A stretch of 53,131 nucleotides of DNA, taken from the NCBI GenBank assembly GCA_013298775.1, contig JAAFIV010000031.1:1-53131 (forward strand), read 5' to 3'. The notes beneath the pieces are model-generated. The model was not told where the DNA came from, did no database searches, and saw nothing but the letters and a program-made list of their open reading frames with translations. Positions 8,487-52,145 of the stretch are shown one piece after another. Source of the stretch: Ignavibacteria bacterium. GTDB taxonomy: Bacteria > Bacteroidota > Ignavibacteria > Kapaibacteriales > UBA4661. The position numbers were made by a program, and so were the translations under genes. Each line of letters opens with the position of its first letter. Within the stretch, counting starts at the first letter, position 1.

Positions 8487-8538
8487 GGATATTGGTAAAT
8501 CTTTGCTCAAAACCTGTATTGATAAAATTTCCGCGCCT

Positions 8539-8634
8539 CATATTTCATATTTCAGCTTTCATATTTCAGCTTTCATATTTCAGCTTTCATATTTCAGCTT
8601 TCATATTTCAGCTTTCATATTTCAGCTTTCATAC
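8539..8634. repeat. 14-bp tandem repeat (TTTCATATTTCAGC)n
   Basis: About seven direct copies of the 14-bp word lie between the LolA-like gene (stop at 8641) and the start of the 3D lipoprotein gene (8486, minus strand). They occupy the 5' leader region of the latter. There are no spacers, so it is not a CRISPR array. Confidence 0.93.
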
Positions 8635-8640
8635 TTTTCT

Positions 8641-9294
8641 TCAATCCCGCAAATCAATAATCTGTGCGCCTTGTGGCGGTTTCCATTCAAAGGCAGCATC
8701 GGGAATACCAGCATCGGGTTTGATGTCGAGAATCGTCCATTCGTGGGTTTGTGTGCCGTCGAAGATGCTTATTTCCTTGAGTTTGAGGGTTTCTTGCTGC
8801 AAACGCAAGGTTACGCGCTGCATATCGCTGATTTGGTCGCGTGCTTTCGCAGGATTCAGCATCAACACCGCATCTTTACTTGCTTTATCAATAACCAGCG
8901 TCGGACGATAGCCACGCGGAAAATTCATAAAAATACGTTCTGGCGAGATATTATCAGGGTTATCGCGAAATTCGCTTATCACAACTTTTTTGTCTGCGGG
9001 AGTGTAATTTTGTACCGTTTTCCCATTGCAAATAATGCTGCGTCCCGCCAATTCAAGAATGTATTTATTACCACGCTTAATCGTCAGAGAACCGCGTATA
9101 TCCTCAGCTTTCAGCACAAAGCGAACCCGCATGGATGCGCCCTCACCGTACTTTTTTTGGACTTGTTGGAACATATCCTCTGCATTTTGCGCACGACTTA
9201 CTGTTGGCGAGGCAATGCTCAATAATATCACGCACAAAGCGTAGGAACACGTCAGTATCTGCTGTTGAGCGATATTTAGAGGTGAGCGTTTCAT
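8641..9294 (-). CDS. LolA-like periplasmic lipoprotein carrier
   Basis: A 217-residue exported protein. The N-terminus has a hydrophobic core (YALCVILLSIASPTVSRAQ) with probable cleavage after about residue 35. The mature part follows the LolA/LolB half-barrel pattern: MFQQVQKKYGEGASMRVRFVLKA.. strands, GSLTIKRGNKYILELAGRSIICNGKTVQNYTPADKKVVI, and a C-terminal AAFEWKPPQGAQIIDLRD typical of LolA-like proteins of this superphylum. LolA shuttles lipoproteins from the inner to the outer membrane. It lies between two lipoprotein genes (the 3D protein and BamD), which fits. The start at 9294 is preferred; the earlier ATG at 9366 would place family B repeat sequence in the leader. Confidence 0.85.
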   Translation of the reverse strand: MKRSPLNIAQQQILTCSYALCVILLSIASPTVSRAQNAEDMFQQVQKKYGEGASMRVRFVLKAEDIRGSLTIKRGNKYILELAGRSIICNGKTVQNYTPADKKVVISEFRDNPDNISPERIFMNFPRGYRPTLVIDKASKDAVLMLNPAKARDQISDMQRVTLRLQQETLKLKEISIFDGTQTHEWTILDIKPDAGIPDAAFEWKPPQGAQIIDLRD

Positions 9295-10503: not shown

Positions 10504-11052
10504 TTATGCGTTCTTCACAAGCGACTCCGCGAGCCAGAGATATTCTTTCGTAAAAAGGTCAATACTTTTCTGGAAGCCAGTATCTGTCAGCTCTGCGTGG
10601 TCGTTGAATTTTTTATCAACTTCTGGCACAATGAGTAATTGCGGCGAAGGAATCCCCCAAAGCGCAGTGGTCATCAGAAAAAGTTGCTGTGCCGCACGCA
10701 TCCCGCCTTGCATTCCAGGTGATGCCGTTGCAATACCAAATGCTTTGCGCGATTGCTTTGGAAAATGGTCGAACAAATTTTTAATTGCGGGCGAAAAACC
10801 ACCATTGTATTCTGGTGAAACCACGATAAATGCTTGCGCAGCAAACATTCGCTCGCCCAAATTCGTCCATTCGGCGGGAACTTGTTCTGGCTTGCCCCAG
10901 ACGTTTTGTACAAAAGGCAGTGCGAAATCACGCATATCCAAAAGCCCGATGTGGTGCGCTGTCTGAGCCGAAAGCTGCTCGTGTAAATACTTTGCAACAC
11001 GCACGGTTACGCTACTTGCGCGAGGGCTGCCAGAGATGATTTCGATGGTCAT
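10504..11052 (-). CDS. NADPH-dependent FMN reductase family protein
   Basis: A 182-residue flavodoxin-like oxidoreductase. It has the FMN phosphate-binding loop GSPRASS at 8-14, SPEYNGG (79-85) for isoalloxazine contact, and the region AFGIATASPGMQGGMRAAQQL of the NAD(P)H-dependent FMN/quinone/azo reductase group. It probably transfers hydride from NAD(P)H to quinones or other acceptors in the cytoplasm; the physiological substrate cannot be read from sequence. The start at 11052 begins at the first beta strand (MTIEIISGSP). The alternative ATG at 11091 would encode the tandem repeat immediately upstream (MTKAPSNQVTKEP). Confidence 0.9.
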   Translation of the reverse strand: MTIEIISGSPRASSVTVRVAKYLHEQLSAQTAHHIGLLDMRDFALPFVQNVWGKPEQVPAEWTNLGERMFAAQAFIVVSPEYNGGFSPAIKNLFDHFPKQSRKAFGIATASPGMQGGMRAAQQLFLMTTALWGIPSPQLLIVPEVDKKFNDHAELTDTGFQKSIDLFTKEYLWLAESLVKNA

Positions 11053-11165
11053 TGGTTCCTTGGTTACTTGGTTACTTGGTGCTTTGGTCATTGGTTACTT
11101 GGTACATTGGTCATTGTCGCCTGACAAATGGCGAATGACCAATTCACCAATGACTAATGACCAAT
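11049..11165. repeat. Family F tandem words (TTGGTCATTGGTTAC), copy 1
   Basis: Repeated 7- and 8-base words (TTGGTTAC, TTGGTCA) run to about 11118, and then the complement words (AATGACCAAT, AATGACTAATG) run to 11165. The two orientations make an inverted repeat around 11108-11144 (ATTGGTCATT...GTCGCC paired with GGCGAATGACCAAT). It begins at the start codon of the FMN reductase gene and lies just 3' of bamA, so it may work as both terminator and leader. Confidence 0.9.
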
Positions 11166-26114: not shown

Positions 26115-26143
26115 AATGAAGCACAAGAACGTGAATTATACTG

Positions 26144-26246
26144 AGTAAGGGTAAAAATTTCATACCGTGAAACTCGTACTACGGCAGCGTTTCTGCGCTC
26201 CTTGAGCCGTAGAACCGAAAGAGTATCTTACCCTTTTTTAGTATAT
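26144..26246 (+). repeat. Family D structured repeat, copy 1
   Basis: Nested inverted arms are visible: AAGGGTAA (26148) with TTACCCTT (26229), CTACGGC with GCCGTAG, and the apical AGCG-TTTCTG-CGCT. The outer arm runs into TTTTTTAGTATA. The sequence ATACCGTGAAACTCG and AGCGTTTCTGCGCTC recurs at 32281-32393. It lies 30 bp after the glycosidase stop codon and could serve as its terminator. Confidence 0.8.
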
Positions 26247-32238: not shown

Positions 32239-32280
32239 GTTAAACAAAGCAATTTGGTGACTTCGTTTACGTTACACAGA

Positions 32281-32393
32281 GGAAGGGTAGAAATTGCATA
32301 CCGTGAAACCCGCACTACGTCAGCGTTTCTGCGCTCTGCGCTTCGCGTAAGCCGCAGGGCAGGAAGAGCATCTTCACCTTTTTTAGTATAGTA
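32281..32393 (+). repeat. Family D structured repeat, copy 2
   Basis: It shares GCATACCGTGAAACCCG, CTACG.CAGCGTTTCTGCGCTC and the T-tract end CCTTTTTTAGTATA with copy 1 near 26150. The hairpin arms are more diverged (GAAGGGT with CTTCACC). It lies downstream of the M16 gene's stop codon (32531, minus strand), in the opposite orientation relative to that gene. Confidence 0.78.
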
Positions 32394-38130: not shown

Positions 38131-38727
38131 CTATGCGGTTTCTGGAGAAATCCATTTCGCAACGACTTGGGGCTGATACAAACGCATTTGTTCAAGTGTA
38201 TCGCTTGGCGATGTGCCGACAAGCAGTAGAGAACGGTTCTCCTCGCGGAGAAAGCCTTTCTGCACCATCTCTTGTAAAAATGTTATCAGCGTATCGTAAA
38301 AACCATCCACGTTCAAGAGCGCGACGGGCTTAGAATGCAGTCCAAGTTGCCCCCACGTAAGCATTTCAAAGAGTTCTTCCAGTGTTCCCATGCCGCCTGG
38401 GAGAGCTATGACACCATCGCACAGTTCGTTCATTTTAAGTTTGCGCTCGTGCATGGTTTCTACCAAATGCAGTTCCGAAAGCTGCGTGTGCGCAAGTTCT
38501 CTTCGTTGCAAAAAATGGGGCAAAACGCCAATAACTTCGCCGTTTTCAGACAATGCACCATCAGCAACCGCGCCCATCAGCCCAACATTCGCGCCGCCAT
38601 AGACCACGCCGATACCTTGCTCGGCAAGGGTTCTGCCGAGTTCAAAGGCAATATCTTTGTACACGCGAGTCGCTCCAAAACTTGAGCCACAAAAAACAGA
38701 AACGCGCTTGATTGGTTGATTGGTCAT
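38131..38727 (-). CDS. LOG-family protein (nucleotide phosphoribohydrolase type)
   Basis: A 198-residue Rossmann-fold protein of the TIGR00730/LOG family. The hallmark PGGMGTLEE is at 110-118 and the active-site region MHERKLKM at 92-99. Plant homologues release cytokinin bases from the riboside monophosphate; bacterial homologues are usually AMP/GMP-type nucleosidases. The start at 38727 overlaps a family F repeat: the first residues (MTNQPIKR) are encoded by repeat words. An alternative start further in is not evident because [12 protein letters not shown] follows at residue 9. Confidence 0.92.
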
Positions 38728-38773
38728 TGGTTACTTAGTCATTGGTTACTTGGTCATTGGTTGATTGGTCGTG
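38723..38773. repeat. Family F tandem words, copy 2
   Basis: TTGGTCATTGGTTACTTAGT and further CATTGGTTACTTGGTCATTG words overlap the start codon of the LOG gene. The repeat has the same relation to a minus-strand start as at 11049, 41428 and 52195. Confidence 0.92.
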
Positions 38774-41405: not shown

Positions 41406-41427
41406 GGTTGCTCCTTTGTTCGTCTAT

Positions 41428-41464
41428 CTATTGGTTACTTGGTCATTAGTTACTTGGTCATTTG
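41428..41464. repeat. Family F tandem words, copy 3
   Basis: ATTGGTTACTTGGTCATTAG then TTACTTGGTCATTTG, immediately 5' of the P5C dehydrogenase start codon (minus strand). Confidence 0.88.
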
Positions 41465-41504
41465 ATTTGAATCTTGAGTTTCTGCGCCACATAAAAACAT
41501 CAAA

Positions 41505-46266: not shown

Positions 46267-48558
46267 CTACTCCTGCACAGGCGTTTCCACAATTATCGTC
46301 ACCGTGCGGCAGTAGAAGCGTCCTTCGGGGATGTCGGTGTCGTACAGCAGCACCGTTTTCCCTAAGCCGCGTACTTCGGCACGTTTCGCCAAATCCAGTG
46401 CTGATGCGGTTTCGCGGGCGCGAGACTTCGACAAACGGAGCGAATAATCAAGCGGATTGGTGTAATCGGTATAGCCTGAAATGCGCACCGTTGCTTGCTG
46501 CCCGATTTGCCCTTTGATGTAATTCGCAATGCGGTTTTGTGTTTGCGTCAAATTTGCTTTGTCGAAATCGAACAAAATCAAGCTGTATCGGTCTATTTCC
46601 TTGTCCTTGATACGCTCGCGGCGTTTGCGCTGAATCGTGATTTGCTCTACCGGCGCAGAACCATTGTGCTGCAAACGATTTCCCTCGGTATCGGTCAAAG
46701 ACAGCGTAAACTCAAGCGGCGTGGGCGCACGCGGGATGTTTGCTTGGCTTTCGGCAATGTTCCAATCCAACACCTTCGGCAGCGAGCCTGTTCCACGAAA
46801 TTCCTTCAGCACTTGTCCGCTTTGCGCAACGCTGATTGTCCACTCTTTCACATCGCCTTGAGGCAAGACTACACGCGGGCGGAAGCGGATAATTGGCGGC
46901 GAAACCGTGCGCACGGTGTCCATTGTTTTCACGGGTTCGAGAATTTCCCACGTATCGCTGGCAAATTCCACACGCCGATTTTCCTGTTGCACTTCGGCGG
47001 TGTATAGCCCCGTGTTAGAAACGGTCGCCATTTGCGGCAGGTTACGGGTTTGAATGGGCAAGCGCGTGGAATCAATTCCCCAGACATTGCTCAAATAATC
47101 ACGCACAGCTTTGGCGCGGCGATACGAAAGCGCAGTATTCGTGCGCTCTGTGGGCGTGGTGTTGTCGTTGCAGCCTGTGAGCGTGAGTTTTGCTTTTGGG
47201 TAAAGGCGCATCCGCTTACCAATGATATTCAAGGCTTGGTGATAGGTTTCTAGCATCTCGAAATTGTGCAGCGTGTTCACGTTGTACGCGCTTGTATCCC
47301 GCGTGGATAGACGCTCGTAGCGTTCGGGGATGTTGTCGCTGCCCTGCTCGAAAAAGATGTACGGCAGAAGCGGGCGCAAATTCACCGATAAAAATTCTTC
47401 AATGCGGAAGGTAACGTCGGGCAGTTCCCGTCCATCGCGCTCCACGCCTACTGCCGTGATGCTTGCCGTGAGTTCGTTGCCGCGTTTCATCGTGCCGTTG
47501 TCGCGGTCTGTTTTTACAATTTCTGGGCGCACGGGCTTGTCGGACGGGCGCGTGATGTTTTGCGGTGGAGGCTCTTGATTTTGTGCGGTCTGTGGCGGCG
47601 TTGGCTCGGAAGACGACGAATCCAATACTTTGCGCTCTGGTGCGAATTTCAGCGCAATTCCTGCACGAATTTGATGTACATTCCAGTAATTACTTGAGTT
47701 TGCCCATGCGGAGCTTTGTACAATCGGCGTGATTGGATAAGAATAAAACACCTCTGGCGTGATATAGACCGTGCGCTTTGCATTCAAGGGAATTTCCCAT
47801 GAAAGCCCCGCCATTACTGAAATAGAGTACGGTGTAGAACCTGGAATTTCGCCGCTTTGCTGATTGCGTAAACGATTCCCTGTATCAACAAACACCAGCG
47901 AATCGGGAGCAACAATGCGCTCTTCCATTGCAAAACTGCGCTGAATCGCGTAGCCGAGATGCCCGCCGAGCATAATCGTCAAGCCGTCGTCGGTCTTGCT
48001 CAAGCCTGTAAAGGGCTTAATGGTGAGCATTGGTTCAAGGGCAATATTGCCTAAGTTCGCGCTGATGGTGTGCGAGATTGTCCCCAAAGCAGGCTCGGCA
48101 TCTCGTGTTGGCGTAGCATTGCCGTACACGAGCGATGTTGTTGCTTTGCGCTCCTCCCACGACGGAACGCCCGCAAGCCGCACATAACCTAAGCGGAGCG
48201 ACATTCCCACAACATTACCAAACGGCACATCGTAGAGCAATCCTGCGGCAAAGTTATGAGCAATGGCATCGCGGAAATTCTCGCAACAGCTTGGCACACC
48301 TGGTAATTCCTTGAAGTTCGCATAGTGCGTGGTGTAGGCGTATTGTCCCCACACGCCGAAGCGGGTGCGTGGCGTGGAATCGAGCTTTTGTGCGTGTACT
48401 GGGATATTTACAAACACAAGCAGCAGCAATAGTAGCACAGACATTCTTGTCTGTGAGTGTTGGTGCATTGTGTGGGAATTCACAGACAGGAATGTCTGTG
48501 CCACTGGGAAACTCAGACTGTGTCTTTGTGGAAAATATTTTTGCATCAAATTTTTCAT
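46267..48558 (-). CDS. Outer-membrane beta-barrel protein with two OmpA-like domains
   Basis: A 763-residue protein. The N-terminal region has a signal peptide core MSVLLLLLLVFVNIPVHAQ and then a barrel domain (RFGVWGQYAYTTHYANF, VGMSLRLGYVRLAGV, IALEPMLTIKPFTG, MLGGHLGYAIQRSF, VYITPEVFYSYPIT). Two OmpA/MotB-like peptidoglycan-binding regions follow: FFEQGSDNIPERYERLS with TLTGCNDNTTPTERTNTALSYRRAKAVRDYL, and ILFDFDKANLTQTQNRIANYI with RISGYTDYTNPLDYSLRLSKSRA. Its first ATG (48558) overlaps the TGA of the upstream gene as ATGA, suggesting coupling. However, residues 18-43 of that reading are family B repeat sequence (AQTFLSVN, QTRMSVL). Alternative starts are Met31 (48468) and Met39 (48444). 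Confidence 0.85.
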   Translation of the reverse strand: MKNLMQKYFPQRHSLSFPVAQTFLSVNSHTMHQHSQTRMSVLLLLLLVFVNIPVHAQKLDSTPRTRFGVWGQYAYTTHYANFKELPGVPSCCENFRDAIAHNFAAGLLYDVPFGNVVGMSLRLGYVRLAGVPSWEERKATTSLVYGNATPTRDAEPALGTISHTISANLGNIALEPMLTIKPFTGLSKTDDGLTIMLGGHLGYAIQRSFAMEERIVAPDSLVFVDTGNRLRNQQSGEIPGSTPYSISVMAGLSWEIPLNAKRTVYITPEVFYSYPITPIVQSSAWANSSNYWNVHQIRAGIALKFAPERKVLDSSSSEPTPPQTAQNQEPPPQNITRPSDKPVRPEIVKTDRDNGTMKRGNELTASITAVGVERDGRELPDVTFRIEEFLSVNLRPLLPYIFFEQGSDNIPERYERLSTRDTSAYNVNTLHNFEMLETYHQALNIIGKRMRLYPKAKLTLTGCNDNTTPTERTNTALSYRRAKAVRDYLSNVWGIDSTRLPIQTRNLPQMATVSNTGLYTAEVQQENRRVEFASDTWEILEPVKTMDTVRTVSPPIIRFRPRVVLPQGDVKEWTISVAQSGQVLKEFRGTGSLPKVLDWNIAESQANIPRAPTPLEFTLSLTDTEGNRLQHNGSAPVEQITIQRKRRERIKDKEIDRYSLILFDFDKANLTQTQNRIANYIKGQIGQQATVRISGYTDYTNPLDYSLRLSKSRARETASALDLAKRAEVRGLGKTVLLYDTDIPEGRFYCRTVTIIVETPVQE
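48431..48507. repeat. Family B repeat, copy 12, inside the OmpA-type leader
   Basis: GTAGCACAGACATTCTTGTC (continuing TGTGAGTGTTGG) and CACAGACAGGAATGTCTGTG with CCACTGGG. It lies 47 bp downstream of the ASH-repeat gene's stop codon, as expected for the family, but falls inside the annotated 5' end of the next gene. Confidence 0.92.
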
Positions 48559-51500
48559 CGTATCACCTCCAAGCGGCGTGTAATGCGCTGTGTGGGCGTT
48601 TGTAAAATGGCGAAATAAAGACCACTTGCGAGCGTGGAAGCGTCAAGTTCAATCGAGTATGTGCCAGATTCCATCTCGGTTGCAAGCAGTTGGCGAAGTT
48701 CTTGTCCCATCGTGTTGGTGAGCGTAAGCGTGGTAAAACCTCGCTCCATGAGGCTAATTTCCAATACCGATTTCTCCTGTACGGGATTCGGTTTTGCTGC
48801 AAGAAGCAGCGTCGCGCTCGTGGCATAGCGTACAAGCCGCGTCCCGCCTGCCAAGCAGATGCGCTCGGCGGCAGTGCGCGCTGAGGCGGTGTCGAGGTTC
48901 AAACAAATGCCGCCCGATGCTGGATTATCGAGAAATACTTGTGTTGCGGTGGTATTGCCGAGTGTGATGCGGAAGGGGATTCGTGCAAGAACGCTATCGG
49001 TAGGAATTGGGGTTGGCAAGGGCAAGCGCAAAGCAATGATGCGGTCTCCACCAACAATTCGCCCTTTGTCTGCGCCCATGGGATACATAATGCTGAGATT
49101 AAAGCGCAGATTTGCACTAAATTCTCTGATGCCTGCCTCGCGCAAGAACCGCGCATTTTCTAAGCGCAATGGCAAAAACACCGTATCGCCAATGCCGCCA
49201 GAAACTGACTCCAAGCGCAAACGCGCCGTTGCGGGCAGAGTCTCGGCAAACGCGCTCACCGACGAGGTTTTGGAGCAGGTAAAGCCGAAATCGCGGAGAA
49301 GGGGCGTAATTTGCGTGGTCAAATACGTGCGTCCGCAGGGCGAACCTGCATAGCGCATGGTTACTTGTGCCATCGCGCCTGGCATGGTTGGATTGGGCGA
49401 AATACTTTCCACCGAAAATATGCTATCCTGCCCGAAACGAAGCGGTACATTCCACTCAATCGGCAGATTGCCCGTGTTGCGCAAGGTGAGCGTTTTGGTA
49501 ACAGGCGTATTCGGCGGAACAGTGCCGAAGGTCGTAAATATCGGCTCTACGGCGTTTATCCATTCAAAATCGCGGACATTTTTTATGCCCGAAAGCGTTG
49601 TGCTGGTCGAGCCAGCAGCGTCGCGGTTTATGGCGTTGGAAAGATAGCGGAAGGTCTGATTTGCCGCGCCCAGCACCATTGGCTGAAAGCGCACGGTGAG
49701 TGTAGTGTCGCGCCCGCCAAGAATGCGAATGGGCAACGACGCGCTACTCGCCGCATCAATACTGATACTTGACGTATTGCCGCTTTGAAGAGATTGAATA
49801 CTGGTGATGAGCAAATCCTGCCCGCCTGTATTGCGCACAGTTACGCTTGAGCGAGAACTCACTTCACAGCTCAGAGGCGCAAACACAAGATTCTCAGTAA
49901 CAGCAATGCGCGGCGGCAAGATAGTTGCTTGCGCAGTGAAGGTTTGTACACGCCCGCAAGCATCAGTGAATGCACCCATGCTGCTTGCGTCGGTTGCGCT
50001 GCCCAAGAAACTCACTGTTACGATGGATGTACCGCCAACAGCCGTTACAGATGGCGTAATATCTCGAATCGTGAACACACCGCCCAGCGTCGTGCGCCCG
50101 CTCCAGTTGAGCGGTGTTGTGCCGAGATTGCGAACGGTCAAAGTGTCCGTTGCGCCGATATTTGGGAAAATGTTCACAAAGCGAAGAGCGGTGCGGGAGA
50201 GAGCGAATCCAACAGAATCTTTCCCACCTTGCAACACGACGTTGAAGGTTGGAAAATCATCGGCATTAGAAATAAAGCGGAGTGTATCGGTGAATGCACC
50301 TGTGCGGCTCGGATTGAAGCGTACTTGAAGCGTTTGCGGCTGTCCAGAGCGCACCGAGAGTGGCACTGCGGGCATGGGAACAAGCGAAAACGGACTACTT
50401 GCGCCGCCCACAAGCGTTATTTGGCTAATGACCAAATCTTGCCCGTCGCTGCTGGTGTTGCGCACGGTGAAACTGACCGTAGAATCATTCGCGCAGGTAA
50501 GCGTGCTGAAATTGATAGGACTCGCAACGCCAATACCCGGACGCGGTTTGTCAATGTTAATCCGCATGGTTACTGGGGTTTGGCGGGAGCAATCGTCCAG
50601 AACGTTCCAAACCGTGCTGAATTGCCCAGCAACCGACGTATTTGCAAAGCGCACCGTTACTTGCGAGGTTGCCCCTGCGAGCGTGGGATTGGGCGAAACA
50701 CTTTCCACCACGTAGCCATTGGTCAGTGTTGCGGGGAGCAGCCACGCTTTGGCGGTTGTGCCTGTATTGGTAATGCTGAATGTGCGCGTTAGTGCTGGTG
50801 CGCCGCGTGTGATGGTGCCAAAATCGAGGTCGCGTGTGGAAACGGTGAGATTGACCGAATCTTTCAATGCCGTAACTGTTACTGTCGTGATGCCTGTTTG
50901 CGCATTGGAAAACAAGGTAATACGCGCTGTGCGGTCGGGTGGCATCGCATTGCGCGGCGTGTAGCGGACGGTAATATCGCGTGTTTGGTTGAATGGCACA
51001 AGAAGTGGCGTAGAATCGGACAGCATCGTGGGGCTGATAATTTGATAATCGGGCAAAGTAAAACTCGCCCCTGTAATGCGCAAGGTTACTTGTCCCGAAT
51101 TATAGACACGCAAGGTGGTGTCCTTGTAGGGCGCGTCAGTATTAGAACAAGCAAAATCGCCGAAGTTGATAGGGCGCGTGGAAAGACCCGATGGCGTAAC
51201 GGTGATGTTTGGCGGGTTCTGTGCGGTGCGTGCTTCGAGCGTAAACAATGGACCGATGACGTTGCAAATTCTATCCTGCGGACTTGTGGCATAGGTGAGA
51301 TATTGTCCTGCAATTGCGCCCAGAAAGCGCACGGTTACAAACGAGGTATCGCCTGGCTGAAGGACAACGCGATAATTGGTCGGATTACTTGGGTCAATAA
51401 TAGGCGTAGGGCGAATGCTGGTAATGCGAAAACTACCGATGTCAATGGGAATTTGCCAATCCATCGGGACAGTACCGTTATTGCGCACAAACGGCAAGGT

Positions 51501-52145
51501 AATATCAGCAGTGGCGTTGGCGGCAAGCACGCCGAAGTCGTAGCCACGCGATAAAAGCTCGAAGGAACGGCGTTCGCGTTTGGTGATGATGGGGAAATCG
51601 CTGACAATCGGGGTACCGATACTATCTACTGAATATACCCGCAAGGTCGCACTGCTACTTGTCCCAAGGTCAGGAGTGGAAAAACTCGCAACAACTAAGG
51701 TGCGCCTTCCAGCGACGACAGTAACAGGTGAAGCGGGTATAAGCACGCGAAAACTTGCTGTTGGTGGTGCGTTCAAAATGCGCACGCTATCCACGCGCCC
51801 GCTAATGAAACGCCGACCAGTAGGTGTTTGCGGAGTAATCGGTACCTCGACGAATAATTCAGTTTCAACGGAATCCAGCACAGGCGAATCGCAAAATTGC
51901 GTACGAAAATTCCAGATTGCGATAGGACCAGCCGTTGCCTCAGATTGCCGCCCTTTCACGGAGCCATTCACAGGCGTATTTACTCTCGCAGACAAGATTT
52001 GACGCGGTGCGCGTGGTGCTTCAGAAAAAAATGTCTGCGCGGCAAGGAATGTGGGCATTCCAAGAGAAATAGCCGAGAGCAAACACAGAGCGGCACACAA
52101 GAAGTGGTGCCGCCGTGAAGGTATTGTTGAGGGAACAATCTTCAT
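48555..52145 (-). CDS. ASH/HYDIN-repeat surface protein with T9SS sorting domain
   Basis: A 1196-residue exported protein. An N-terminal signal peptide (FLCAALCLLSAISLGMPTFLAAQ) precedes a chain of about seven immunoglobulin-like choice-of-anchor/ASH modules spanning roughly residues 190-985. Module starts include YDFGVLAANATADITLPF, INFGDFACSN, LDFGTITRGAPALTRTFSI, INFSTLTCAND and LRFVNIFPNIGATDTL. A cohesin-like beta-sandwich of about 130 residues follows (RLRLESVSGGIGDTVFLPLRLENA). The C-terminal 80 residues are a type A T9SS sorting domain (AKPNPVQEKSVLEISL, GLYFAILQTPTQRITRRLEVIR). The protein should be exported by T9SS and attached to the surface. It overlaps the OmpA-type gene by 4 bp. 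Confidence 0.92.
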   Translation of the reverse strand: MKIVPSTIPSRRHHFLCAALCLLSAISLGMPTFLAAQTFFSEAPRAPRQILSARVNTPVNGSVKGRQSEATAGPIAIWNFRTQFCDSPVLDSVETELFVEVPITPQTPTGRRFISGRVDSVRILNAPPTASFRVLIPASPVTVVAGRRTLVVASFSTPDLGTSSSATLRVYSVDSIGTPIVSDFPIITKRERRSFELLSRGYDFGVLAANATADITLPFVRNNGTVPMDWQIPIDIGSFRITSIRPTPIIDPSNPTNYRVVLQPGDTSFVTVRFLGAIAGQYLTYATSPQDRICNVIGPLFTLEARTAQNPPNITVTPSGLSTRPINFGDFACSNTDAPYKDTTLRVYNSGQVTLRITGASFTLPDYQIISPTMLSDSTPLLVPFNQTRDITVRYTPRNAMPPDRTARITLFSNAQTGITTVTVTALKDSVNLTVSTRDLDFGTITRGAPALTRTFSITNTGTTAKAWLLPATLTNGYVVESVSPNPTLAGATSQVTVRFANTSVAGQFSTVWNVLDDCSRQTPVTMRINIDKPRPGIGVASPINFSTLTCANDSTVSFTVRNTSSDGQDLVISQITLVGGASSPFSLVPMPAVPLSVRSGQPQTLQVRFNPSRTGAFTDTLRFISNADDFPTFNVVLQGGKDSVGFALSRTALRFVNIFPNIGATDTLTVRNLGTTPLNWSGRTTLGGVFTIRDITPSVTAVGGTSIVTVSFLGSATDASSMGAFTDACGRVQTFTAQATILPPRIAVTENLVFAPLSCEVSSRSSVTVRNTGGQDLLITSIQSLQSGNTSSISIDAASSASLPIRILGGRDTTLTVRFQPMVLGAANQTFRYLSNAINRDAAGSTSTTLSGIKNVRDFEWINAVEPIFTTFGTVPPNTPVTKTLTLRNTGNLPIEWNVPLRFGQDSIFSVESISPNPTMPGAMAQVTMRYAGSPCGRTYLTTQITPLLRDFGFTCSKTSSVSAFAETLPATARLRLESVSGGIGDTVFLPLRLENARFLREAGIREFSANLRFNLSIMYPMGADKGRIVGGDRIIALRLPLPTPIPTDSVLARIPFRITLGNTTATQVFLDNPASGGICLNLDTASARTAAERICLAGGTRLVRYATSATLLLAAKPNPVQEKSVLEISLMERGFTTLTLTNTMGQELRQLLATEMESGTYSIELDASTLASGLYFAILQTPTQRITRRLEVIR

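What the first reader, a model, noticed from the sequence alone, without database searches (positions are those of the whole stretch)
48431..48558. Family B repeat embedded in the leader of the OmpA-type protein
The ATGA overlap at 48555-48558 argues that the OmpA-type gene starts at 48558, yet residues 18-43 would then be repeat-encoded and precede the signal-peptide core. Either the repeat was captured as part of an unusually long signal peptide, or insertion has destroyed the old start and translation now begins inside the repeat (48468 or 48444). Either outcome is a visible effect of a mobile repeat on a gene's 5' end.
Basis: partly seen in the sequence, partly recalled or inferred. Interest (0 to 1): 0.65.

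Follow-up and report, generated by a model that had tools for sequence, protein, structure and literature searches.

The report
Mobile palindrome inside a signal peptide
A short mobile palindromic DNA repeat has landed in frame between the start codon and the export signal of an outer-membrane-type protein gene, and relatives carry repeats at the same gene end, so the repeat probably lengthens the signal peptide instead of destroying the start.

Summary
Window 48431-48506 is a pair of inverted, GTRG-footed REP hairpins (a REPIN/BIME), from a family with roughly 490 exact core hairpins in this Candidatus Kapaibacterium-type genome. It lies in frame in codons 18-43 of an OmpA-family gene, between the start codon and the hydrophobic core of the signal peptide. 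Start codon, Shine-Dalgarno (SD) sequence and ATGA overlap with the upstream gene are kept in 9 of 9 loci compared. Three genus members that practically lack the repeat family have short leaders (22, 27, 35 residues); the five that have it carry in-phase leaders of 55-58 residues, or 184 in one. A genome of another genus carries a different repeat there. So the repeat was most likely captured as signal-peptide n-region; the old start was not destroyed. By-eye reading gives seven such candidates among 159 repeat groups in a 1.25-Mb sample. In-frame REPs are known, so this is a new member of a known kind, with good evidence for recurrence at one site. Translation through the repeat is inferred. 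Side finding: in three relatives (one across a contig break) a REP-flanked transposase (RAYT) lies in frame inside recG.

The parts
46267..48558 (-). OmpA-family protein gene, 763 aa, leader of 57 aa ending VHA|Q
48555..52145 (-). Upstream gene, 1196 aa, Ig-like/ASH-type domains and a Por_Secre_tail match just under its cut-off; its stop overlaps the OmpA start as ATGA
48562..48570 (-). Shine-Dalgarno GGAGGTGAT inside the last codons of the upstream gene; GGAGGT kept in 9 of 9 loci compared
48556..48558 (-). Start codon ATG of the OmpA-type gene, conserved with and without the repeat
48431..48506 (.). Family B element: REPIN/BIME made of two inverted REP hairpins; encodes residues 18-43
48432..48455 (+). 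REP hairpin GTAG-CACAGACATTCTTGTCTGTG
48481..48504 (-). REP hairpin GTGG-CACAGACATTCCTGTCTGTG, 54 nt after the start codon
48391..48435 (-). Hydrophobic core and cleavage region of the signal peptide (residues 42-56)
   Evidence: assigned by eye, no signal-peptide predictor available
48466..48468 (-). Alternative in-repeat ATG (residue 31), at most a 4-nt GTGA upstream, absent in sister genome G005
48442..48444 (-). Alternative in-repeat ATG (residue 39), no SD by eye, in the predicted hairpin stem; kept in G005, no in-frame counterpart inside the repeat of G001/G006

Best explanation
The element is a REPIN (paired GTRG-tagged REP hairpins) of a family mobilised, in the past or in trans, by a RAYT-type Y1 transposase. 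It inserted after the start codon of a gene overlapping its upstream neighbour (ATGA) and before the hydrophobic core of its signal peptide. The REP is stop-free in two of three frames on this strand, and the n-region tolerates varied sequence, so insertions that keep frame survive: ribosomes start at the old SD/ATG, read the repeat as about 25 extra n-region residues, and the Sec signal still works and is cleaved after VHA. Shown: repeat, conserved start, phase, presence of repeats at the same place in relatives. Inferred: translation through the repeat, export, cleavage, and mobilisation by RAYT.
For: Start, SD and ATGA overlap conserved in 9 of 9 loci compared. Repeat-free genus members G002, G004, G003 have leaders of 22, 27, 35 aa; repeat-bearing G000, G005, G001, G006, G007 have 57, 58, 55, 55, 184 aa. 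Presence in the leader follows the family: 277, 239, 105, 39, 177 forward strict-pattern matches in those five against 1, 0, 0 in the three without. All nine leaders are in phase with 0 stops, phase not having been used to find them; in G007 the other two frames hold 6 and 13 stops over 552 nt. The protein tree needs 3 changes of the presence label, and the foot sits at offset 54 in G000/G005 and 37 in G001/G006, in another frame. G009, another genus, has a different repeat (36 mostly partial matches in its genome, itself included) in the same place. The same arrangement is seen in other exported-protein genes. The predicted mRNA hairpin leaves the old start outside the repeat stem.
Against: Codon-position differences in the leader show no purifying selection on its amino acids: 5, 6, 2 for G000/G005 over 43 codons and 4, 0, 3 for G001/G006 over 36, against 59, 39, 213 and 53, 36, 208 in the mature part. 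This fits a neutral n-region but also an untranslated stretch. My own rough gene caller, by codon score, put the start at 48444. In the short leaders openness is weak evidence: one other frame is also stop-free in G000, G005, G002, G003 and G004. Late starts are possible: GTG just before the core in G001/G006 (no SD by eye), and in G007 GTG codons 95/97 behind a GGAGG inside the leader and an ATG at 156. No proteomics, and no signal-peptide predictor was run. No RAYT flanked by this repeat was found in the window's own genome.
Confidence: 0.82

Rival explanations
1. The repeat is effectively extragenic: real translation starts inside or after it (48444, 48468, or a non-ATG codon), and the open frame upstream is incidental. 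The hairpin acts on the mRNA only.
For: Di Nocera et al. 2013 (PMC3733652, section 15 and section 17 part 1 read) warn that many REPs at ORF amino termini may be extragenic. The leader shows no amino-acid constraint. A codon-score caller chose 48444. In-repeat ATGs exist, and in G007 GTG codons 95/97 follow a GGAGG. In the same sample several REPs, read by eye, lie upstream of a later start.
Against: A strong SD plus ATG, overlapping the upstream stop, is kept in 9 of 9 loci with no in-frame stop before the core, so any ribosome starting there must read through. The late starts are not conserved between the lineages and, G007's GTG codons apart, lack a good SD. The orthologous insertions in G001/G006, G007 and G009, found without selecting for openness, are in phase.
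Confidence: 0.14
2. One ancestral insertion inherited by the genus, with precise loss in G002/G004 and in G003, rather than repeated insertion. (Compatible with the best explanation as to mechanism.)
For: Spacers of the G000 and G006 pairs look partly alike by eye; 3 changes can be one gain and two losses, and the long branch of G003 makes its place less sure. Offsets in G001/G006 (37) and G007 (40) are close and in the same phase.
Against: Different offset and reading frame in G000/G005, a different repeat family in G009, and near or total absence of the family from G002/G003/G004. In the YfiR-like gene, REP and REP-free leaders also alternate.
Confidence: 0.2
3. The repeat in the leader was selected as a regulator (mRNA hairpin tuning coupled translation or transcript stability).
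For: Predicted fold -56.9 kcal/mol, z -4.8 against 200 shuffles.
Against: The fold follows from the palindrome itself. The element is not conserved across orthologues: three genus members lack it and G009 has another repeat.
Confidence: 0.08

Closest known systems
GTAG-tagged REPs and their intragenic copies (Di Nocera et al. 2013, PMC3733652; passages, section 15 in full and part 1 of 2 of section 17 read)
   Same: GTRG foot, short stem, inverted pairs, mostly intergenic, some in frame inside genes including DNA repair genes; GTGG variant reported for most O. terrae GTAG-20 elements
   Different: The phyla listed there for GTAG repeats (Proteobacteria, Cyanobacteria, Chloroflexi, PVC) do not include Bacteroidetes/Chlorobi; amino-terminal cases were left doubtful there, whereas here orthologues place a conserved start upstream of the repeat
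REPIN/RAYT systems (PMC3116915, PMC2817692; starts of abstracts in a search listing only)
   Same: Paired inverted REPs at a regular spacing; a Y1 transposase flanked by the same REPs in relatives
   Different: No such flanked transposase found in this genome; in relatives it sits inside the recG reading frame
Rickettsia palindromic elements (Ogata et al., not read; seen through passages of PMC10969869 and PMC3733652)
   Same: Palindromic repeats inserted in frame in protein genes
   Different: Reported at about 150 bp and nearly half of them inside ORFs; here copies are rarely in frame inside genes. Sequences were not compared
[quoted passage not shown] abstract and section 16 read)
   Same: A small mobile repeat contributing to a signal peptide
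   Different: There the repeat covers amino acids 1-30; here it lies behind a conserved start and repeats recur at the same place in relatives

Membership tests
REP / REPIN (GTAG superfamily) | Palindrome with GTAG/GTGG tetranucleotide at one foot | tested here: met
   Foot not required by the search; a perfect GTRG foot on at least one side in 245 of 267 hairpins
REP / REPIN (GTAG superfamily) | High copy number in the genome | tested here: met
   491 forward exact core matches, 0 for the reversed control
REP / REPIN (GTAG superfamily) | Inverted pairs at regular spacing | tested here: met
   103 of 159 groups hold 2 or more hairpins; 73 of 159 groups are '+-' pairs; 53 of the 99 two-hairpin groups have a gap of exactly 28 nt
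REP / REPIN (GTAG superfamily) | Mostly extragenic | tested here: met
   7 of 159 groups lie in a frame with coding signal on both sides, against 1183 of 1590 random placements; this counts in-frame residence only
REP-RAYT (REPtron) | A Y1 transposase flanked by the same REPs | tested here: inconclusive
   Met in G005, G006 and, at a contig end, G007, where the RAYT lies in the recG frame; not met in the window's own genome, whose two Y1 hits have no such REPs in the 3.3-kb loci scanned
REP-RAYT (REPtron) | HUH motif and catalytic tyrosine in the transposase | tested here: met
   DHVH and YI..NP motifs in 3 of 3 recG-borne copies; the meaning of the motifs is recalled
Rickettsia palindromic elements | Member of a described RPE sequence family | not tested
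   RPE sequences were not fetched; only the manner of in-frame residence is compared
Sec signal peptide | Positive n-region, hydrophobic core, A-x-A type cleavage site | tested here: inconclusive
   Core (max 12-residue hydropathy 3.3) and VHA|Q (by eye) present; no predictor or assay

The most novel reading that the evidence does not exclude
In this genus several palindromic mobile repeats persist in genes mainly as in-frame, stop-free passengers at two kinds of permissive site, signal-peptide n-regions and a RecG loop. The autonomous form (REP-RAYT-REP) itself lives and is translated as part of the RecG helicase, an intein-like strategy without splicing.
Probability: 0.25. Interest if true: 0.72.

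Novelty: new member of a known kind. Interest (0 to 1): 0.45.

Why it matters
It gives an orthologue-based case in which an amino-terminal REP is probably coding, a point the 2013 survey read here left open. It marks the signal-peptide n-region as a likely refuge for mobile palindromes, testable by proteomics, and warns that gene callers may trim true starts past such repeats (my own rough one did). The recG-borne RAYT, if active, would be an unusual way for a transposase to reside in a working gene.

Tried and rejected
Start destroyed by insertion: rejected, because start and SD are conserved. A single-codon coding score for calling genes was weak (it put the OmpA start at 48444) and was replaced for classification by a fifth-order frame model, though and still use the rough gene calls. 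General in-frame residence across gene bodies: rejected; only 7 of 159 groups have coding signal on both sides. Reading these 7 by eye, two (C23:40760, C23:116620) look like REPs upstream of a later start (the second without a listed SD), two are n-region cases (C67:68507, C56:159644), and three in two ORFs (C1:95630, C1:95733, C23:151945) are internal. RAYT beside the repeat in the own genome: not found. Literature: 9 of 10 paper searches used. Among the papers listed I saw none, by title or start of abstract, about a RAYT inside recG or repeated REP capture in one signal peptide; the library is partial and only three papers were opened (PMC3733652, PMC2759123, PMC10969869). The Ogata 2002 paper was not held.

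Rows left out. Of the 14 loci printed, nine were used; the five hits from other families (G051, G017, G024, G032, G055; 40-41% identity) were left out of the count. Of these, G032 also shows an ATGA overlap and a short leader without a repeat; the other four have other upstream sequence, judged by eye. In some searches, hits that looked like paralogues or partial genes (for the YfiR-like gene G002, G003, G007 at 46-49%; for the C78 gene G002 and G003) were not used. The seven n-region cases were picked by eye from the rows printed, which omits rows with a downstream score under 8 and 3'-end rows; an SD-like 4-mer or longer before an upstream ATG was listed for 3 of 7 (C25, C67, C34). Some of these REPs are degenerate: the exact core is absent at C56. 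The enrichment figure (n-regions 0.54% of coding, P about 1.6e-14 for 7 of 10; 2.9e-8 for 4 of 7) rests on this by-eye, openness-biased count and on rough gene calls, and is an order of magnitude only.

Full report
What is there. The window is contig C25 of a 5.19-Mb genome in 95 contigs. The one named relative from the genome-contig scan is Candidatus Kapaibacterium sp. (87% identity to the OmpA-type protein). The finding lies at the 5' end of a 763-aa OmpA-family gene on the minus strand (PF00691, E 1.7e-13). Its ATG at 48558 overlaps the stop of an upstream 1196-aa gene as ATGA. Reading the minus strand, the order is GGAGGTGAT (48562-48570), ATG, 17 codons of leader, the repeat (codons 18-43), the core LLLLLLVFVNIP, and VHA|Q.

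What the repeat is. The unit 48431-48506 is two inverted hairpins, GTAG-CACAGACATTCTTGTCTGTG and, on the other strand, GTGG-CACAGACATTCCTGTCTGTG. The core pattern matches 491/493 times on the two strands of the genome (one hairpin usually counts on both), and 0 times in the reversed-pattern control. In a 1.253-Mb sample (60 stretches of 20 kb plus the window) a search allowing 3 mismatches found 267 hairpins in 159 groups. A perfect GTRG foot, not required by the search, flanks 245 of 267; 103 groups hold two or more hairpins, and 53 of 99 two-hairpin groups share the same 28-nt gap. These are marks of REPs and REPINs of the GTAG superfamily (PMC3733652, passages, section 15 and section 17 part 1). 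They are seldom found in frame inside genes: 7 of 159 groups have coding signal on both sides in an open frame, against 1183 of 1590 random placements.

Does the start survive? The OmpA-type orthologue was compared in eight genus members (G000 included) and one genome of another genus, G009; five more distant hits printed were left out. All nine keep GGAGGT, the ATG and the ATGA overlap. Leaders measure 22 (G002), 27 (G004) and 35 (G003) residues without the repeat, and 57 (G000), 58 (G005), 55 (G001), 55 (G006) and 184 (G007) with it. With the stricter pattern GCACAGACANNNNTGTCTGTG, forward counts in these genomes are 1, 0, 0 (G002, G004, G003) against 277, 239, 105, 39 and 177 (G000, G005, G001, G006, G007): each of the five genus members rich in the family carries it in this leader, and none of the three with at most one copy does. 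All nine leaders are multiples of three with no in-frame stop. In G007, with five GTRG feet, the other frames hold 6 and 13 stops; in G000, G005, G002, G003 and G004 one other frame is also free of stops, so openness alone says little for short leaders.

One insertion or several? A maximum-likelihood tree of the mature proteins needs three changes of the presence label, and starred branches force all three; that may be three gains or one gain and two losses, and G003 and G009 sit on long branches. The repeat foot lies at offset 54 and reads VAQTFLSV in G000/G005, but at offset 37 and reads STDILVC in G001/G006; in G007 it is at 40, in the same phase as G001/G006. In G009 the leader holds a different interspersed repeat, with 36 matches (mostly partial, itself included) in that genome and 39 in G000. 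I take repeated insertion as more likely but not proven.

Is it a pattern? Among sample groups with coding signal downstream, seven lie behind an upstream ATG and before a hydrophobic core, with no ATG between repeat and core: C25:48436 (this finding), C67:68507, C56:159644, C34:119572, C78:68836, C78:56775 and C23:63414 (read by eye; an SD-like stretch was listed before an upstream ATG in three, C25, C67 and C34; some of the hairpins are degenerate). Orthologues were fetched for three of the other six. For the YfiR/HmsC-like protein (PF13689), G000 (degenerate copy) and G001 (exact core) carry REPs in the leader at different places, while the leaders of G004, G005 and G006 show none. For the VWA/OmpA protein at C67, leaders of the 38-47% identical hits in G001, G002, G006 and G007 lack the core. 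For the OmpA-type protein at C78, G005 has a diverged repeat-like stretch at the same place, and G001, G004, G006 and G007 have other leaders. A rough calculation puts n-regions at 0.54% of coding sequence, so seven cases against three internal groups is a large excess; the count is by eye and biased towards open frames.

Results against the reading. The leader shows no purifying selection on amino acids: differences by codon position are 5, 6, 2 (G000/G005, 43 codons) and 4, 0, 3 (G001/G006, 36 codons), against 59, 39, 213 and 53, 36, 208 in the mature parts. This is what a tolerant n-region would give, but an untranslated leader would give it too. A rough codon-score gene caller set the start at 48444. 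Possible late starts exist: the in-repeat ATGs here, GTG before the core in G001/G006, and in G007 GTG codons 95/97 behind a GGAGG and an ATG at 156; they differ between lineages. Earlier authors concluded that many amino-terminal REPs may be extragenic. Against that, a ribosome that initiates at the conserved, SD-served ATG meets no stop before the mature protein, so at least some product should carry the repeat, unless initiation there fails.

How it most likely works. Shown: a REPIN sits in frame behind a conserved start; genus members without the family have short leaders; those with it have long in-phase leaders. Inferred: a RAYT moved the element; frame-keeping insertions survive in the n-region because Sec signals tolerate long n-regions (general knowledge; long autotransporter signals seen only as a listing, PMC2805444); the protein is exported and cleaved as before. 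The mRNA hairpin (-56.9 kcal/mol, z -4.8) leaves the old start outside the repeat stem and is not kept in orthologues, so I give it no selected role.

Side finding on the transposase. The own genome has two Y1 transposase hits, one with a stop, neither with these REPs in the 3.3-kb loci scanned. In G005 and G006 a stop-free Y1 domain (partial Pfam match), flanked by the same REPs, lies in frame inside recG between the DEAD and C-terminal helicase domains. In G007 the same pieces are seen on two contigs that break there. RecG of G001-G004 has only a short loop there, and that of G000 has another interspersed repeat in frame. The three embedded transposase domains are 46-53% identical, while the RecG parts after them are 85-92% identical, and HUH and tyrosine motifs are kept. 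This is a likely source of the family in relatives; whether it acts from there is untested.

Verdict. The feature is real. In-frame REPs and a repeat in a predicted signal peptide are both on record (PMC3733652, PMC2759123), so this is a new member of a known kind, with the clearest interest in the recurrence at one gene end and in the recG-borne transposase.

Noticed in passing
L096 (G006:C10), L100 (G005:C139), L166/L171 (G007:C58, C20): A REP-flanked Y1 transposase (RAYT) lies in frame inside the recG reading frame in two relatives and, across a contig break, in a third, with HUH and tyrosine motifs kept; not in recG of G000-G004.
   Followed up: partly
G000:C78:62299-62472 (L169): The own genome's recG carries a different interspersed palindromic repeat in frame in the same loop.
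   Followed up: partly
L069 (G007:C114): OmpA leader grown to 184 residues with five GTRG repeat feet and internal duplications, still in phase; a GGAGG precedes GTG codons 95/97 inside it.
   Followed up: yes
L184 (G001:C553) and L181 (G000:C56): YfiR/HmsC-like protein with REP insertions at different places in the leader in two genomes.
   Followed up: partly
L002 (G000:C8:8052-8396): Stop-free 192-aa Y1 transposase with no family B repeat in the locus scanned; which repeat it serves, if any, is unknown.
   Followed up: no
window 8524-8649, 11037-11116, 38712-38767, 41408-41471: Short tandem arrays (14-nt TCATATTTCAGCTT; TTGGTTACTTGGTCATTGG type) dispersed in the window.
   Followed up: no
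window 26136-26245 and 32272-32390: Two diverged copies of a stretch of about 110 nt, 6.1 kb apart.
   Followed up: no
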